Below, one piece after another: positions 3,449-31,349 of a stretch of DNA of 34,299 bases. Each line of letters opens with the position of its first letter. Within the stretch, counting starts at the first letter, position 1. This DNA comes from Spirochaetales bacterium (GTDB lineage Bacteria > Spirochaetota > Spirochaetia > DSM-2461): NCBI GenBank assembly GCA_028532905.1, contig JAQQAM010000214.1, positions 1 through 34,299 of the forward strand, written 5' to 3'. The notes beneath the pieces were generated by a model, which was given only the letters and a program-made list of their open reading frames with translations, ran no database searches and was not told the DNA's origin. The position numbers were made by a program, and so were the translations under genes.

Positions 3449-3478
3449 AAAAAAAAGCCGCCCGGTGAGGGCAGCTTT
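3449..3478 (-). terminator. Terminator of the histone-fold gene
   Basis: On the minus strand, AAGCTGCCC pairs with GGGCGGCTT (one U-G pair) around a 5-nt loop and leads into a run of eight T residues (plus-strand A run 3449-3456). It sits about 20 bp past the stop codon of the small minus-strand gene, and is separate from the tct terminator just upstream. Confidence 0.8.
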
Positions 3479-3498
3479 CTTCTTTTTGAAAAAATATC

Positions 3499-3684
3499 CT
3501 AGAAATCTTTTTCCTGAACAGTTTTTCTTTTATCGTTTTTTGCATTTTCGATTGCAGCGTCACACATTTCTCTGATCTTGTCTGAAAGAACATCGATCAC
3601 TTTTGCGGAACACTTAAGATCCCCATTACTTTTGATGTAATTCTTAACTTTAGATGACACCACCAGGGTTTCTTTTTCAGCCAT
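3499..3684 (-). CDS. Bacterial histone-fold protein (Bd0055-like)
   Basis: The 61-residue basic protein matches the single-histone-fold bacterial proteins of the Bdellovibrio Bd0055 type, which bind DNA and can be abundant chromatin proteins. The fold can be read directly: helix 1 near residues 7-19 (VVSSKVKNYIKSN), a long central helix near 25-50 (AKVIDVLSDKIREMCDAAI), then KRKT (52-55), the histone loop-2 motif, followed by a very short third helix ending at residue 61. Arg53, Thr55 and Asp60 sit where the conserved R-T pair and the Asp of histone folds lie. The ATG at 3684 is chosen because AAGGAG lies 7 nt upstream; the longer in-frame extension to 3852 has no ribosome-binding site and runs into the divergent gene. 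It is monocistronic with its own terminator. DNA binding is inferred from the family. Confidence 0.85.
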   Translation of the reverse strand: MAEKETLVVSSKVKNYIKSNGDLKCSAKVIDVLSDKIREMCDAAIENAKNDKRKTVQEKDF

Positions 3685-3832
3685 AAATTGCTCCTTATGC
3701 CGTTTGTTGGTGCTTATTCTATCACAGAATCTCAATTCAAATAAATAGATTTTTGCAAAACGCTGGATAAAATGGGCTCCCTGCAATAATATTAAGCCGT
3801 AAATAAGGCTAAAACACCACCGGAGGCCGGTC

Positions 3833-5029
3833 TTGAGACGATTCCTGTTCATTCTTCTGCTGTTGATTACTGCCCTTCTCCCCCTTTCCGGGGAGGATAT
3901 AATGAATTGTTATTTAGTCACCGTAGGTCCCGGAGAGCCTCTGTACTCCTGGTTCGGACATACGGGGATCATTATTGAAGAAGGGAACAGCAGCCGCTTC
4001 TATGATTTTGGTAACTTTTCCTTTGAATCGGAGAATTTCTACGGCAATTTTGCCATGGGACGGCTGATCTATCTGAAAATAGGAGTCTCCGGAAGAGCCT
4101 ATCTGAACTATATTGTCCGTGAAAACAGAAATGTAACCGTCCAGCAGCTCAATATCCCACAGGACAGAATAAAAGACATGCAGATTTTTCTGGAGAATGA
4201 GATACAACCGGAGAACAACACCTATCTGTACCATCACTACCGGGACAACTGCTCCACAAGACCCAGAGATATTATAGACAAAGCCCTGGATGGACAGTTG
4301 TATGCCGCCAGTGCTGTTCCCTCGGGGGAAACCTACAGAACCATGTTCCGCAGCAGAACCAGTCACAGCTTTTTCCCGGACTGGCTCCTCTCCCTGCTGC
4401 AGGGGCATTCTATTGACGATGAGATCAGCTGGTGGGATACCATGTTTCTTCCGGATGAACTGATGCGGCAGCTGGATGAACTGACTATTGCGTCCGACTC
4501 AGGTCCGGTCAGTGCTGTTCTGGCCAAAGAGCAGCTGGCCGAATCCACCGTACAGAGGGCTATCCCGGAGAAGATACCCGCCAATACAGCCGGAGCTCTG
4601 CTCACAGGCCTTCTGGGGGGACTGATCCTGCTATTTCTGCAAAGAGCATCATCCTCATCATCCCGGCGGGCCAGGATTTCAGGACGCGCCGCTTATACCC
4701 TGATTATGACGGCCCTTTCCGTATTCGGATTGGTATTTTACTTTATCACCTTTTTTACCAACCATGATGTGGCTTCCGGCAATATAAACATACTCCTGAT
4801 TCATCCCTTCTACCTTGTTCCGGCGATTTGTCTTCTCCGGGGAAAGAGGAAGGGATTCAGCCGGTTCTGGCTGGCTCAGCAGATTGTGTGGCTCCTGATG
4901 CTCCTGGTCAATCTGACCTTCTGGCATCAGGGCAACCTCAGAACCGCTGTGGTTTTTGAGCTTCTGATTCTCTTTTCCCTACTGGGGCAGTTCTACCCGG
5001 TTCGCCTTAAGCCCGGGAAAGCGGATTGA
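3833..5029 (+). CDS. DUF4105 (Lnb N-terminal periplasmic domain) membrane protein
   Basis: The product has a signal peptide (residues 1-20) followed by a DUF4105 domain to about residue 160, carrying SWFGHTG (39-45) and HYRDNCSTRPRDI (135-147), the conserved His and Asn-Cys-x-Thr-Arg signatures of this family. The domain resembles NlpC/P60-like papain folds; a hydrolase role is possible but unproven. The C-terminal third holds about five membrane helices (roughly 250-268, 285-307, 317-335, 343-365, 370-388), so the periplasmic domain is tethered to a membrane bundle. The start is TTG at 3833, supported by GGAGG 6 nt upstream. Its last 51 bp overlap the end of the convergent M16C peptidase gene. 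Confidence 0.85.
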   Translation: MRRFLFILLLLITALLPLSGEDIMNCYLVTVGPGEPLYSWFGHTGIIIEEGNSSRFYDFGNFSFESENFYGNFAMGRLIYLKIGVSGRAYLNYIVRENRNVTVQQLNIPQDRIKDMQIFLENEIQPENNTYLYHHYRDNCSTRPRDIIDKALDGQLYAASAVPSGETYRTMFRSRTSHSFFPDWLLSLLQGHSIDDEISWWDTMFLPDELMRQLDELTIASDSGPVSAVLAKEQLAESTVQRAIPEKIPANTAGALLTGLLGGLILLFLQRASSSSSRRARISGRAAYTLIMTALSVFGLVFYFITFFTNHDVASGNINILLIHPFYLVPAICLLRGKRKGFSRFWLAQQIVWLLMLLVNLTFWHQGNLRTAVVFELLILFSLLGQFYPVRLKPGKAD

Positions 5030-7936
5030 TGCCTTATCCAGCTTTTCAGGATGAGCCATAACGGTTATACCGTCTTCATTCCAGCGGGATAAAAGAGTGT
5101 CTCCGGCTTTCCGGATCTCTTCGGTTCCGCAGTTCATCAGGTAATCCCGCTTATTCTGCCGCATTTCATCACTGATATTATACAGCCGGCGTTTCAGGAC
5201 AATCATCCCCTTCTCTGAGGGAGACAGGGGTTTCATCTCCTTTCCCACAACCGAAATCAGAGCCTTTTCCAGCTCTTCATCATCCGAGAACTCCAGGTAC
5301 TCTTTGAGGCTCTCTTCAAAAGCATCCAGGGACTTCTCTATTTCGGGATCCCTGTAGGTGGCAAAGGAAAAAATCCGGTCCAGACCGGAGAGATGACTGA
5401 AGGCTCCATAGGCGCCTCCCTTCATTCTGATTTTCTCCCAGAGGGGTCCGGTCTTCAAAAGGTGGCTCAAAAGAGAATCGGCCGCATGGGCTTTCTCTTC
5501 CAGTGAGCTGCCCCGCACTGCCTTCCCGACAAAACCGATGGAGGCTCCGATTCCCAGTCCTTCTGCTTCCGTAAGAGCGGGTGCCGGAGCAGGCATGTCA
5601 ATATCAGATGCCAGGTCTGATCTGACGGGGCTTTCGGCAGCTGAGTCAGGGAGGGTTTCCATCCAGAACTGCACCATGGCCTCCCTGTGATCCTGTACGG
5701 CCTGCTCATCCATGGTGAGGTTGAGGATCAGATGATCAGCATTGAATATGACGGCTCTCAGATCCTTCATCAGGGCAGCCAGCTCCGGCAGTCTGTCCTT
5801 CCGGTTCAGCAGCTGTTCTAGAAACTGGACCTGTCCGATTCCGAACATCCGATCCTCCAGTGCAGCCGAAGAACTGAAACGGCTGGCCCCCCGGATCAGA
5901 ACATAGGAGTGCCCTCCGGGAACCAGGGAAGACTTCATATCATTCCACAGCTCCATCAGAATCTGCTCAATGCGCACCAGGTTATCAAAATCTGCATTCA
6001 GCATGAGCGAGGAGGCCAGCTCAAGGGCTTCCTGTCTCTGTCCCTCCAGCATTTTCAGCCGGGTATAGAGGAAGACTTCCGGCTGCTGATCAGGTGCATC
6101 ACCCACCTTGTGTCCCGCCTCCAGATTGGCGGCAAAACCTCCGGTTTTCAGAGACAGTTCCCGGGTAATTCTGTCATAGGAGACACCGGGAAGGCCGCAG
6201 CCTGCCAGAAGTTTGGAAAACAAGGGCAGATAGGGATAATACGCCGGATCCAGATGTTTCAGAGAAAAGGCCATATCGTTGTACAGGATGCCGTTGGTAA
6301 ACACGGACTGCCCCAGTACGGTCCCCCGGTTTGAGGGAATCTCTTCAAAGGGAAGCCGCTTCACCTTTACAGGGATATCTGATTTCCGCAGGAAGGGAAC
6401 AGCACCTGTATCCTCTGCATCCTGGAAAGCCTGGAGGGCCTTGTTCTTCTCTTCCAGGACCTTGAGATCCTCTTCGGAAAAATCCTTCTGCAGCCGATCC
6501 AGCTCCTCTCTCAGGGCTTTCTCCTGACGGCTCTGCAGTTCTGTGTCAGGGCGGACGGTGACACGGGTCCAGTGATGATTCTCAAGGACCCACTCCCTGA
6601 GAATCGATTCAAAGTACCCCGGTTCTTCCGCCCTTTTCCTGATCTCTTTGATCACAGGAGAAAAACGGATGGACTGCTCGGGAGCCAGCCCGTAGTTCCA
6701 GCCTTTCATTACCTTCCGGAGCAGCCTCATCCCGAAGGGACCGCCTCCTTTGATCTCTCTGTCCCGGAATTCAACCAGCCGGAGACAGCTTTCTTTCAGA
6801 TCTTCTTCAAACCCCTTCTCTGCCAGATCCCCGAGGGTCCGGAACACCAGCTTTTGCAGGTCATCCGCCTTGTCCGGGTCCGTTCCCCGGAGAGCCACGC
6901 TGAAAACCGCTTCATTCAGATCGAAGTCCACACCGCTCACAGGAGACAGATCGTCACCCAGACCGGATTCAAGCAGGGCCTTGGACAGAGGGGCTCCCGC
7001 ATTTCCGATCAGCATCTCCGCCAGAATGGACATACTCAGCTGCCGGACCGGATCTCCATGCCCAAAGAGTTTCCAGTTCAGACTGATGGTGCTTTTGCCC
7101 TTTGTATCCTCCCCTTTTCCCAGGGGCCAGGATTTCTCGAGAGCGGCAGGAGCTGACCATGAGGACTGCAGAGCCACCCGGGAGTCAATGTCCCTTTTAT
7201 CAAACTCATGAAGAAACCGTTCTTCAATAAAGTTCAGAGTCTTCTGCGAAGGAATGTCCCCATACAGAAAGATCCGGCAGTTTGAGGGGTGGTACAAATT
7301 CTTATGAAATTCCAGAAACTGCTCATAACTCAGAGAGGGAATATGCTCCGGATCTCCGCCGGAGTCCACACCATAGGGATTATCGGGAAACAGAGACCGG
7401 ATGGACCATTCGGAAGCGATGCCCTCCTGGGAGGAATAGTTGCCTTTCATCTCGTTGTAGACAATACCGGTTCTCTGAAGAACTCCCTTCTCATCCAGCT
7501 CCAGACGGTGTCCCTCCTGACGGAAGACCTCTTCCTTCAGCATGGGGAAAAAGACGGCATCACCATACACAGCCATCAGATTGAAAAAATCTTTTTCCAG
7601 AACACTGGCTGCGGGATACAGGGTTTTGTCGGGATAGGTCATGGCATTCAGAAATGTGTTGACACTGCCCTTCATCATGGAAAGAAAGGGATCTTTCACA
7701 GGGAAATTCCGGGAGCCGCACAATACGGAATGCTCCAGAATATGAGCTACCCCGCTGCTGTCTGCCGGGGGTGTCCTGAAATTGAAAGAAAAAACATTCT
7801 CCTCATCGTCATTGTGAACATGATAAATTTCACAACCCGTAGCTTTATGTTTAAAGTAGTATCCTTTTCCCCTGTATTCCTCCAGCTCATCTGTGGAAAT
7901 AAGCTCAAAGGCGGGGGGACAGATCTTATCTGACAT
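4979..7936 (-). CDS. M16C zinc metallopeptidase (PreP/CYM1-type, insulinase family)
   Basis: This large (985 residues) M16C peptidase is of the presequence-protease type, a two-halved clamshell enzyme that degrades short unstructured peptides. The inverted zinc motif HILEH is at residues 65-69, followed by SVLCGSRNFPVKDPF, the hallmark context of PreP-like enzymes. The downstream glutamate region GIVYNEMKGNYSS supplies the third zinc ligand. No signal peptide is visible, so it is probably cytoplasmic. The ATG at 7936 has AAGGAG 7 nt upstream. The C-terminus overlaps the DUF4105 gene by 51 bp in convergent orientation. Length and motifs show no sign of damage. Confidence 0.95.
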   Translation of the reverse strand: MSDKICPPAFELISTDELEEYRGKGYYFKHKATGCEIYHVHNDDEENVFSFNFRTPPADSSGVAHILEHSVLCGSRNFPVKDPFLSMMKGSVNTFLNAMTYPDKTLYPAASVLEKDFFNLMAVYGDAVFFPMLKEEVFRQEGHRLELDEKGVLQRTGIVYNEMKGNYSSQEGIASEWSIRSLFPDNPYGVDSGGDPEHIPSLSYEQFLEFHKNLYHPSNCRIFLYGDIPSQKTLNFIEERFLHEFDKRDIDSRVALQSSWSAPAALEKSWPLGKGEDTKGKSTISLNWKLFGHGDPVRQLSMSILAEMLIGNAGAPLSKALLESGLGDDLSPVSGVDFDLNEAVFSVALRGTDPDKADDLQKLVFRTLGDLAEKGFEEDLKESCLRLVEFRDREIKGGGPFGMRLLRKVMKGWNYGLAPEQSIRFSPVIKEIRKRAEEPGYFESILREWVLENHHWTRVTVRPDTELQSRQEKALREELDRLQKDFSEEDLKVLEEKNKALQAFQDAEDTGAVPFLRKSDIPVKVKRLPFEEIPSNRGTVLGQSVFTNGILYNDMAFSLKHLDPAYYPYLPLFSKLLAGCGLPGVSYDRITRELSLKTGGFAANLEAGHKVGDAPDQQPEVFLYTRLKMLEGQRQEALELASSLMLNADFDNLVRIEQILMELWNDMKSSLVPGGHSYVLIRGASRFSSSAALEDRMFGIGQVQFLEQLLNRKDRLPELAALMKDLRAVIFNADHLILNLTMDEQAVQDHREAMVQFWMETLPDSAAESPVRSDLASDIDMPAPAPALTEAEGLGIGASIGFVGKAVRGSSLEEKAHAADSLLSHLLKTGPLWEKIRMKGGAYGAFSHLSGLDRIFSFATYRDPEIEKSLDAFEESLKEYLEFSDDEELEKALISVVGKEMKPLSPSEKGMIVLKRRLYNISDEMRQNKRDYLMNCGTEEIRKAGDTLLSRWNEDGITVMAHPEKLDKASIRFPGLKANRVELPQ

Positions 7937-19624: not shown

Positions 19625-19693
19625 CCGCTGGAGTAATATAGATATGTGCGGTTAAGGCTTCTCAATATCTCGGCAAGGAGTTTGGAATTTCAT

Positions 19694-20728
19694 ATGAATA
19701 CAAATCAGAATGACCTTCAGCCTCTGAATAATTATGTTATATTTCAGACCGATTCCGGAAAAGTAAACATAGACGTTTTCTTTTTTGAGGATACTCTCTG
19801 GCTTACACAAAAAAAAATTGCCGAATTATTCGAAAAAGGGCGAAGTACAGTAGCTGAACATCTAAAGCAGATCTTCATCGATGGAGAACTGGAAGAACAA
19901 GTGGTATGTCGACATTTCCGACATACCACTCCGCACGGAGCCATTGATGGGAAAACTCAGGAACATGATGTTAAGTATTATAACCTGAAAGCTATTACAG
20001 CTGTTGGCTATAGAGTAAACTCTCAAAGGGCAATAGAATTCAGAAAGTGGGCAACAGACGTTCTGCATGAATACATCATCAAAGGTTTTGCCATGGACGA
20101 TGAGAGGATGAAATCTCTACAGCATTTCGGCCAGGATTACTTTGATGAACTTCTTGAACGTATCAGGGAAATCCGTCTTAGTGAAAGAAGGTTCTATCAG
20201 AAAATCACAGACATCTATGCTCTTTCTGCCGATTACGACAAGAACTCTGATGTAACAAAAGAATTCTTTGCAACGGTTCAGAATAAATTGCACTGGGCCA
20301 TTCAGGGAAAAACTGCAGCTGAGATAATCTACACAGAAGCAGATGCATCAAAAATCTATATGGGGTTAAAAACATGGAAACATGCCCCTGACGGCAAGAT
20401 TCTTAAATCAGATGTTACTATTGCTAAAAACTATCTTGAAACGGAACATCTGAAAGAACTGGAAAGAATAGTATCAGCCTATCTTGACCTTGCTGAAAAT
20501 AGAGCCAAACGCAGTATTGTGATGAATATGAAGGACTGGGTTGTGTTTCTTGACCGCTTTCTTGAACTATCGGATTACCCAATACTACTGGATCAGGGAA
20601 AGATATCGGCTCTTAAAGCAAAACTAAAAGCGGAAGCAGAATATGACAAATACAGAGTCATTCAGGACAGAGACTATATCTCTGATTTTGATAAAGAAGT
20701 AAATAAATTATTAAAGGATAAACATTAA
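19694..20728 (+). CDS. RhuM-family protein
   Basis: The 344-residue product belongs to the RhuM (virulence protein RhuM / Fic-neighbour) family, found on genomic islands and beside restriction or toxin genes in many bacteria. Family blocks seen: DTLWLTQKKIAELFEKGRSTVAEHLKQIF (winged-helix-like DNA-binding segment near the N-terminus), FRHTTPHGAIDGKTQ, and YYNLKAITAVGYRVNSQRAIEFRKWATDVL. The molecular function is not established. The ATG at 19694 is preferred because homologues start a few residues before the NYVIFQTDSG strand and AAGGAG lies upstream, though 14 nt away. A GTG at 19646 would add 16 residues. Codon use is more AT-rich than neighbours and the flanks hold a repeat and a gene remnant, so horizontal acquisition is likely. 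Confidence 0.88.
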   Translation: MNTNQNDLQPLNNYVIFQTDSGKVNIDVFFFEDTLWLTQKKIAELFEKGRSTVAEHLKQIFIDGELEEQVVCRHFRHTTPHGAIDGKTQEHDVKYYNLKAITAVGYRVNSQRAIEFRKWATDVLHEYIIKGFAMDDERMKSLQHFGQDYFDELLERIREIRLSERRFYQKITDIYALSADYDKNSDVTKEFFATVQNKLHWAIQGKTAAEIIYTEADASKIYMGLKTWKHAPDGKILKSDVTIAKNYLETEHLKELERIVSAYLDLAENRAKRSIVMNMKDWVVFLDRFLELSDYPILLDQGKISALKAKLKAEAEYDKYRVIQDRDYISDFDKEVNKLLKDKH

Positions 20729-30013: not shown

Positions 30014-30802
30014 AAAACGTCAAAACAACAGATTCTCTCACTCATAAAGAAATCGGACTCCCCCTTGTCGGGAGAGGAAATCAGCAGAGAAATCGGTATC
30101 ACCAGAGTCGCCGTATGGAAGCAGATTCAGTCTCTTATAGAAGAAGGATACGCCATAGAGTCCAGCTCCAAAGGGTACAGACTCAACCGGGAGGGAGACT
30201 ATCTTTCAAAGCTGGAGTTCAGCGGCGATCAGGATATTCTGTTTTACAGAGAACTGAACTCAACCATGGATGAAGCGGTCAGGCAGCTCTCGGTCCAGCC
30301 GGAGGAAGCCCGGAGCTTCACCGTTCTCGCCGATCACCAGAATGCCGGTCTGGGCCGGGACGAAAATACCTGGGAATCTCCCAGCGGCGGTATCTACATG
30401 ACCTTCGTTATACGGGAGAATCTCCCTCTGGATGCAGCCGGGCAGCTGAAAAAGAAAGGCATTTATACGGCTTTGAGTGCTCTGCAGACCCTGGGCGGTA
30501 TCCCGGGCAAAATGCTTTCCTACACATATGAAGGAAATTTATTCCTCCGGGAAAAGAAGATCGGAGGTCTTCTGGAAGAGTACCTTGTCCGGGGTGACAG
30601 GATGCTCTGGTACACCCTGGGACTGGGGATTCACCTGAATGATTCCCCCTCCCCCCCTCTGTACTCCGTCAGATCTCTTCTGGACAGAGACCTGAACAGG
30701 GTTGCTGTTATAAAAGAAATCAAACAGATCTGGGATTTGTCCCGGAAGAAAGATATGAAAGAAATTACAGATTCATTGGAGAAAGATTATGTCAAAAGAT
30801 AA
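30005..30802 (+). CDS. birA: BirA-like biotin regulator with degenerate ligase site
   Basis: A 265-residue two-domain protein: BirA-type winged helix (about 8-60; LSGEEISREIGITRVAVWKQIQSL, SSKGYRL) and a biotin protein ligase fold (about 78-260; ELNSTMDEA, WESPSGG, KKIGGLLEE, LGLGIHLND). The two catalytic signatures are lost. GRGRRGRKW reads GLGRDENTW (115-123), and KWPND, with the Lys that contacts biotinyl-AMP, reads TYEGN (174-178). Ligation is doubtful. It heads a biotin-uptake operon and its start lies inside a BirA-type operator, so autoregulated repression is likely. No Shine-Dalgarno precedes the ATG; no better start exists without cutting the helix-turn-helix. bioY overlaps the stop by 14 bp. 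Confidence 0.88.
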   Translation: MVNKTSKQQILSLIKKSDSPLSGEEISREIGITRVAVWKQIQSLIEEGYAIESSSKGYRLNREGDYLSKLEFSGDQDILFYRELNSTMDEAVRQLSVQPEEARSFTVLADHQNAGLGRDENTWESPSGGIYMTFVIRENLPLDAAGQLKKKGIYTALSALQTLGGIPGKMLSYTYEGNLFLREKKIGGLLEEYLVRGDRMLWYTLGLGIHLNDSPSPPLYSVRSLLDRDLNRVAVIKEIKQIWDLSRKKDMKEITDSLEKDYVKR

Positions 30803-31349
30803 AATCAGAAAAACCGTACTGGCTGCGGTGTTTACGGCTCTTATTGCCGCCAGTTCATTCTTTACCATTCCCGTGGGGCCTGTTCCGATTGTTCTGACAA
30901 CCATGTTTGTCGTGCTGAGCGGTATGCTGGGAGGGCCCTGGGTGGGACTTTCGGCTGTGGGCAGTTACCTTATACTGGGAATTATCGGACTTCCCGTCTT
31001 TGCCGGCGGAACAGCGGGCATTGCCAAACTGATGGGGCCCACCGGAGGCTTTCTCATCGGATACCTCCTCGCCCCTGTGGCAGGGGGTTTCATCTTCAAT
31101 CCTCCCGGGGACAAGGCAAAAGGACTGAAGGTTCTTCTGGCAGTTCTGGGTGCCTTTACAGCGGGGGCTCTGATCTATGTTCCCGGCATCCCCTGGCTCA
31201 AATACAGTCTGTCCATGGACTGGCCTTCGGCTCTGCAGGCGGGTCTGATTCCCTTTATTCCCGGATTTATCATCAAAAATGCAGCTGCCGCAGCCCTCGC
31301 CTTTGCCCTGAAAGAGAGATTTCAGAATTTTCTTAAATCAGAAGAGTAA
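30789..31349 (+). CDS. bioY: Biotin ECF transporter S component BioY
   Basis: BioY is the membrane protein that binds biotin and, with the ECF energy module, carries it into the cell. The 186-residue length and about six helices fit. Seen motifs are FTIPVGPVPIVLTTMFVVLSGMLGGPW (25-51) and the conserved GLPVFAGGTAGIAKLMGPTGGFLIGY (67-92), whose VPIVL/T and GGxxGxxxLxGPTGGYL elements define BioY. The ATG has GGAGAAAG upstream and overlaps the birA stop by 14 bp, so translation is coupled. Confidence 0.97.
   Translation: MSKDKIRKTVLAAVFTALIAASSFFTIPVGPVPIVLTTMFVVLSGMLGGPWVGLSAVGSYLILGIIGLPVFAGGTAGIAKLMGPTGGFLIGYLLAPVAGGFIFNPPGDKAKGLKVLLAVLGAFTAGALIYVPGIPWLKYSLSMDWPSALQAGLIPFIPGFIIKNAAAAALAFALKERFQNFLKSEE

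What the first reader, a model, noticed from the sequence alone, without database searches (positions are those of the whole stretch)
3499..3684. Bacterial histone-fold protein in a spirochaete
A 61-residue monocistronic gene with strong ribosome-binding site and terminator encodes a single histone fold with the KRKT motif and conserved Arg, Thr and Asp. Bacterial histones of this size (Bdellovibrio Bd0055 type) were only recently shown to be chromatin proteins with unusual DNA binding. The third helix here is almost absent, which may change the dimer or DNA interface.
Basis: partly seen in the sequence, partly recalled or inferred. Interest (0 to 1): 0.7.

Follow-up and report, generated by a model that had tools for sequence, protein, structure and literature searches.

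The report
HBb-type histone in an Oceanispirochaeta genome
This is a genuine, highly conserved 61-residue bacterial histone of the same kind already solved from Bdellovibrio; its short third helix is normal for that family and the group had already been reported in this class of spirochaetes, so it is a solid but not surprising find.

Summary
The gene is real, on the minus strand (coding 3684-3502, stop 3501-3499), with a Shine-Dalgarno site, a conserved extended -10 box and its own terminator. The genome is an Oceanispirochaeta.

The protein is a single histone fold of the published "bacterial dimer" (HBb/Bd0055) group of alpha3 histones: 52% identical to HBb (phmmer 1e-11), above the Pfam PF00808 cut-off, AlphaFold model best matched by HBb in Foldseek. 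It lacks both residues that make the Leptospira "face-to-face" histones tetramers. The short third helix is family-wide, not a peculiarity, and Spirochaetia were already listed as carriers of this group in 2024.

Added here: one copy in 25 of 26 genomes of its family, in fixed synteny; dN/dS 0.01-0.06 within the genus; codon usage as biased as ribosomal proteins; HU present alongside; and a Cys where HBb has a DNA-contacting Thr (T23 -> C25) in 50 of 52 main-clade Spirochaetia sequences, against 1 of 38 other dimer-type histones.

Most likely it is an abundant, non-specific, DNA-bending nucleoid protein working beside HU. Dimerisation, DNA binding and abundance were not tested. New member of a known kind; interest low to moderate.

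The parts
3499..3684 (-). Histone gene, 61 aa, HBb-type bacterial dimer alpha3 histone (coding 3684-3502, stop 3501-3499). Model: alpha1 residues 5-21, alpha2 29-50, alpha3 58-60
3691..3696 (-). Shine-Dalgarno AAGGAG, 6 bases before the ATG; GGCATAAGGAGC is invariant in six genomes of the genus
3716..3724 (-). Extended -10 box TGATAGAAT (TGnTAGAAT in six of six genomes of the genus); probable promoter of the histone gene
   Evidence: not found by the generic scan, so inferred from conservation
3739..3749 (-). Conserved TCTATTTATTT element; its last hexamer TTTATT is a weak -35-like site 17 nt from the -10 box
   Evidence: function inferred
3449..3483 (-). Intrinsic terminator of the histone gene, hairpin running into a T run
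   Evidence: analogous hairpins in the other genus members
3833..5029 (+). Divergent neighbour: Lnb_N / 5TMH_Lnb membrane protein, adjacent to the histone in all 24 other family genomes that have the histone; context only
4979..7936 (-). M16C/PreP-type peptidase, part of the conserved neighbourhood; context only

Best explanation
A chromosomal, HBb-type 'bacterial dimer' alpha3 histone. Two 61-residue chains pair head to tail through their alpha2 helices. The dimer grips the phosphate backbone across minor grooves with alpha1 (S11, K12, K14, K18), loop 1 (K24, C25, S26) and loop 2 (K54, T55, with R53 clamped by D60, and K59), and bends DNA without sequence preference. It is probably an abundant nucleoid protein acting beside HU. 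SHOWN: the gene, its family, the predicted monomer fold, conservation, purifying selection and biased codon usage. INFERRED from HBb: dimer, DNA binding and bending, abundance, importance for viability.
For: phmmer to HBb 1.1e-11 and 52% identity over 56 residues; PF00808 above gathering score; AlphaFold2 histone fold, pLDDT 84, five HBb chains as the best Foldseek matches; FtF tetramer residues absent, N47 and D51; tree separates it from the FtF clade with 100/100; S11, K12, K14, K54, T55, D60 invariant in 61 relatives, matching DNA contacts or the RD clamp of HBb (PMC11317129); dN/dS 0.008-0.055; codon adaptation 0.77 in O. crateris, above all 103 background ORFs; near-universal single copy with fixed synteny in the family; Schwab et al. 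list bacterial dimers in class Spirochaetia (PMC11390915).
Against: No dimer model, DNA-binding assay or proteome could be obtained. Net charge is only +2, though HBb and HLp fragments are similar. PF00808 is passed by only 1 bit. HBb's own binding mode is disputed: straight sheath (PMC10627809) or bending (PMC11317129). Three HBb contact residues differ (N22 to K24, T23 to C25, R57 to K59).
Confidence: 0.82

Rival explanations
1. A face-to-face (FtF) tetrameric histone like Leptospira HLp and archaeal HTkC, wrapping about 60 bp of DNA.
For: Same phylum as Leptospira; second-best sequence match is HLp, 8.7e-10; VIA-align scores HLp, HTkC and HBb as tied (Z 6.4-6.8).
Against: Both dyad residues that hold FtF tetramers are missing: N47 and D51 instead of Arg and Asn, which all 12 FtF sequences sampled here have. 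Separate clade, 100/100.
Confidence: 0.06
2. A histone-fold protein with a local regulatory or non-chromatin role (a specific regulator of its neighbours or a subunit of a complex), not a general nucleoid protein.
For: Divergent arrangement with a conserved intergenic region and linkage to the same Lnb_N gene in the whole family; patchy in the class, 61 of 297 genomes; HU is already present.
Against: HBb DNA-contact residues are kept; codon usage predicts high expression, unusual for a local regulator; outside the family the neighbours differ while the protein stays 75-85% identical.
Confidence: 0.1
3. A recent horizontal acquisition or mobile-element passenger with little role in the host.
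For: Patchy distribution across the class and phylum.
Against: Present in 25 of 26 family genomes, including closed isolate genomes O. crateris K2 and T. perfilievii P; conserved synteny; strong purifying selection; no match in phage, plasmid or viral collections.
Confidence: 0.02

Closest known systems
HBb / Bd0055 of Bdellovibrio bacteriovorus (PDB 8CMP, 8FVX, 8FW7, 9EZZ, 9F0E), bacterial dimer alpha3 histone
   Same: Length, single fold, shortened alpha2 and one-turn alpha3, SK motif in alpha1, RKTV loop, RD clamp with the extra Asp (D51 = HBb D49), alpha2 Cys (C41 = HBb C39); 52% identity
   Different: Ends right after the alpha3 turn, without HBb's few extra C-terminal residues; N22/T23/R57 of HBb are K24/C25/K59; host is a free-living spirochaete, not a predator
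Bacterial dimer histones of class Spirochaetia listed by Schwab et al. 2024 (PMC11390915)
   Same: Very probably the same group: same class, same motif, same lack of the FtF residues
   Different: Individual members could not be compared because supplementary tables were not available; the Cys in loop 1 and the synteny are not mentioned in the main-text passages read
HLp of Leptospira perolatii (PDB 9QT0-9QT2), face-to-face histone
   Same: Alpha3-truncated histone fold, AEK.TL.V.SKVK N-terminus, KRxTV loop
   Different: HLp has the Arg and Asn that build the tetramer; this protein has N47 and D51. Separate clade
HU (PF00216) in the same genome
   Same: Expected to do a similar job: non-specific DNA bending
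   Different: Unrelated fold; coexists with the histone

Membership tests
Bacterial dimer alpha3 histone (HBb type) | Sequence clustering with HBb/Bd0055 (the category is defined by sequence, PMC11390915) | tested here: met
   phmmer 1.1e-11, best solved match; falls with HBb, away from FtF, in the tree
Bacterial dimer alpha3 histone (HBb type) | Alpha3 of 3-4 residues and shortened alpha2 | tested here: met
   alpha2 29-50, alpha3 58-60 in the model
Bacterial dimer alpha3 histone (HBb type) | RKT motif with Asp clamp, and alpha1 lysines | tested here: met
   R53 K54 T55 D60; K12, K14, K18
Bacterial dimer alpha3 histone (HBb type) | Absence of the FtF tetramer residues Arg(-8) and Asn(-4) relative to the loop-2 Thr | tested here: met
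   N47 and D51
Bacterial dimer alpha3 histone (HBb type) | Forms dimers only; binds and bends DNA | not testable with these tools
   Only single-chain structure prediction was available; no assay
Face-to-face (FtF) alpha3 histone | Conserved Arg and Asn for dimer-dimer contacts | tested here: not met
   N47, D51; all 12 FtF sequences in the sample have R and N
Archaeal nucleosomal histone (HMf type) | Full-length alpha3 (about 10 residues) and the tetramerisation His | tested here: not met
   Alpha3 is one turn; the protein contains no His
DUF1931 pseudodimer | Two histone folds in one longer chain (Pfam DUF1931) | tested here: not met
   61 aa, one fold; DUF1931 14.6 bits, below its 21.8 cut-off

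The most novel reading that the evidence does not exclude
The Spirochaetia HBb-type histones have swapped a DNA-contacting loop-1 Thr for a nearly invariant Cys (C25), in addition to the family-wide alpha2 Cys (C41), so that DNA binding responds to thiol oxidation, sulfide or metal in these largely anaerobic, sulfur-associated spirochaetes: a redox-tuned bacterial histone.
Probability: 0.06. Interest if true: 0.6.

Novelty: new member of a known kind. Interest (0 to 1): 0.27.

Why it matters
It gives a clean case of a dimer-type histone in free-living spirochaetes with cultured relatives (O. crateris K2, T. perfilievii P), in the same phylum as the tetramer-type histones of Leptospira. One phylum would therefore allow a direct comparison of how two histone architectures organise a nucleoid, here beside HU. 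The clade-specific Cys in the DNA-contact loop is a testable handle.

Tried and rejected
Upstream in-frame start giving 117 aa: rejected, no conserved protein upstream of the SD. FtF assignment: rejected on the two tetramer residues and the tree. Mobile-element origin: no phage, plasmid or viral-contig match. Rfam and tRNA scans of the window: nothing. Generic sigma-70 scan: no site, so the promoter rests on conservation. The NCBIfam archaeal histone model matches but below its cut-off (26.7 against 50 bits). One search is a mis-oriented alignment, replaced. The first residue count by clade mislabelled duplicate sequences and was redone. Ribosomal protein L2 was not found in this incomplete genome, so codon usage was calibrated on O. 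crateris K2, G003. A literature search for a redox-active bacterial histone found nothing relevant.

Full report
WHAT IS THERE. The finding's interval holds a 61-codon gene on the minus strand (the plus strand is closed by stops). Upstream lies AAGGAG six bases before the ATG and, further up, an extended -10 box TGATAGAAT with a weak -35-like TTTATT 17 nt away. In six genomes of the genus the block GGCATAAGGAGC and the TGnTAGAAT box are invariant while much of the rest of the intergenic DNA drifts. A generic sigma-70 scan did not call this promoter, so it rests on conservation. Downstream is a hairpin of -21.5 kcal/mol (z -2.85) running into U residues, and the other genus members have hairpins of different sequence at the same place.

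WHICH ORGANISM. The genome is 4.98 Mb in 296 contigs. A same-genus relative, G003, has one contig of 4,012,482 bp, exactly the size published for Oceanispirochaeta crateria K2 (PMC7380536); family member G008 has a 3,667,739-bp contig, the size of Thiospirochaeta perfilievii P in the same paper. I therefore place the window in Oceanispirochaeta; this is an inference from size identity.

WHICH FAMILY. phmmer against solved structures gives HBb/Bd0055 at 1.1e-11, then HLp of Leptospira at 8.7e-10; identity to HBb is 52% over 56 residues. PF00808 is passed by one bit. The AlphaFold2 model (61-row alignment, pLDDT 84) has alpha1 5-21, alpha2 29-50 and one turn of alpha3 at 58-60. Foldseek puts five HBb chains first; a second aligner ties HBb with HLp and HTkC (Z 6.4-6.8), so fold alone does not decide the oligomer type. 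Residues do: face-to-face histones carry an Arg 8 and an Asn 4 positions before the loop-2 Thr (PMC11390915). Here these are N47 and D51. All 12 distinct Leptospira-type sequences in my sample have R and N, which is also how I sorted them; none of the 52 main-clade Spirochaetia sequences has the pair. A maximum-likelihood tree, which does not use that sorting, separates the two groups with 100/100 support and gathers the main Spirochaetia clade with 100/99, though 62 columns leave many inner forks unresolved.

THE THIRD HELIX. It is not a peculiarity of this protein.

HOW IT PROBABLY WORKS. HBb contacts DNA with T8, S9, K10, K12, K16, N22, T23, S24, K52, T53 and R57, and braces loop 2 with R51, D58 and D49 (PMC11317129). 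With the +2 offset these become S10, S11, K12, K14, K18, K24, C25, S26, K54, T55, K59 and R53, D60, D51. The dimer core V11, L31, I35, L38 becomes V13, L33, I37, M40. S11, K12, K14, K54, T55 and D60 are invariant across 61 relatives. I infer a dimer that bends DNA without sequence preference, as HBb is reported to do, noting that HBb's mode is itself disputed (PMC10627809 reports straight, sheathed DNA). Dimer prediction with two chains was not possible with the tools.

IS IT IMPORTANT TO THE CELL. Within the genus dN/dS is 0.008-0.055, with dS mostly 0.4-1.7. Codon adaptation relative to the ribosomal-protein locus is 0.77 in O. crateris, above all 103 background ORFs and above the median of the ribosomal locus itself (0.70); 0.2% of synonymous versions with background codons score as high. 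The window's own gene scores 0.72 on the same scale. This predicts high expression, as measured for HBb and the L. interrogans histone (PMC10627809), but is not a measurement. HU is also present: four HU/IHF-family matches in this genome, and HU in all 39 good-quality genomes of the sample, with or without histone. The histone adds to HU; it does not replace it.

DISTRIBUTION. One copy in the window's genome and in 24 of 25 other family members (the miss is a 77%-complete genome), 61 of 297 genomes of the class, 41 of 296 of the phylum counting both types. No genome or 68 gave two matches. In all 24 family genomes the histone sits beside the same divergent Lnb_N membrane protein, and in those whose sequence reaches far enough the M16/PreP peptidase and the next ORF are usually found as well; outside the family these neighbours were not found. 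No copy was found in phage, plasmid or viral collections. This speaks for vertical descent within the family.

ONE FEATURE WORTH KEEPING. HBb's DNA-contact T23 is a Cys (C25) in 50 of 52 main-clade Spirochaetia sequences, against Thr in 35 of 38 other dimer-type sequences, of which one has Cys; C41 in alpha2 is common to both groups (49/52 and 36/38). One of the two scan patterns contained that Cys, so loci from that scan lean towards it; the whole-genome searches use no such pattern and show the same split. A redox or metal effect is possible but has no direct support, and a conservative Thr-to-Cys drift fixed by descent is the simpler reading.

NOVELTY. Bacterial dimer histones were already listed for class Spirochaetia in 2024 (PMC11390915), so this is a new member of a known kind, with modest interest.

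Noticed in passing
L102, L103, L106, L108, L110, L113, L114 (Bacteriovoracaceae and related MAGs; e.g. L102:4797-5192): Genes of 132-149 codons encode two HBb-type histone folds in tandem in one chain. Two of them have no Pfam match at 0.001, so they are not the DUF1931 pseudodimer: a covalent dimer made of HBb-type folds. Doublet bacterial histones as such are known.
   Followed up: partly
L126 (G242:C54:38059-38229): One genome in family f63, whose other members carry the Leptospira-type face-to-face histone, has a dimer-like one instead (R at -8 but D at -4) grouping with Bdellovibrionales. Could be transfer or a contaminant contig; genome is 78% complete.
   Followed up: no
window 3685-3832: The divergent intergenic region between the histone and the Lnb_N gene keeps a TCTATTTATTT block and other short blocks across the genus, more than the one promoter seems to need.
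   Followed up: no
G000:C144:9535-10084 (not in the window): Two adjacent HU/IHF-family matches in this genome, the second inside a long open frame of about 438 codons; the same pair recurs in other genus members.
   Followed up: no
window 19646-20728: RhuM-family protein gene (PF13310), standing alone between lon and an Ig-like-domain protein gene.
   Followed up: no
window 30789-31349: BioY biotin transporter gene (PF02632) followed by what reads as ABC ATPase and transmembrane genes, an ordinary biotin ECF transporter by gene order.
   Followed up: no
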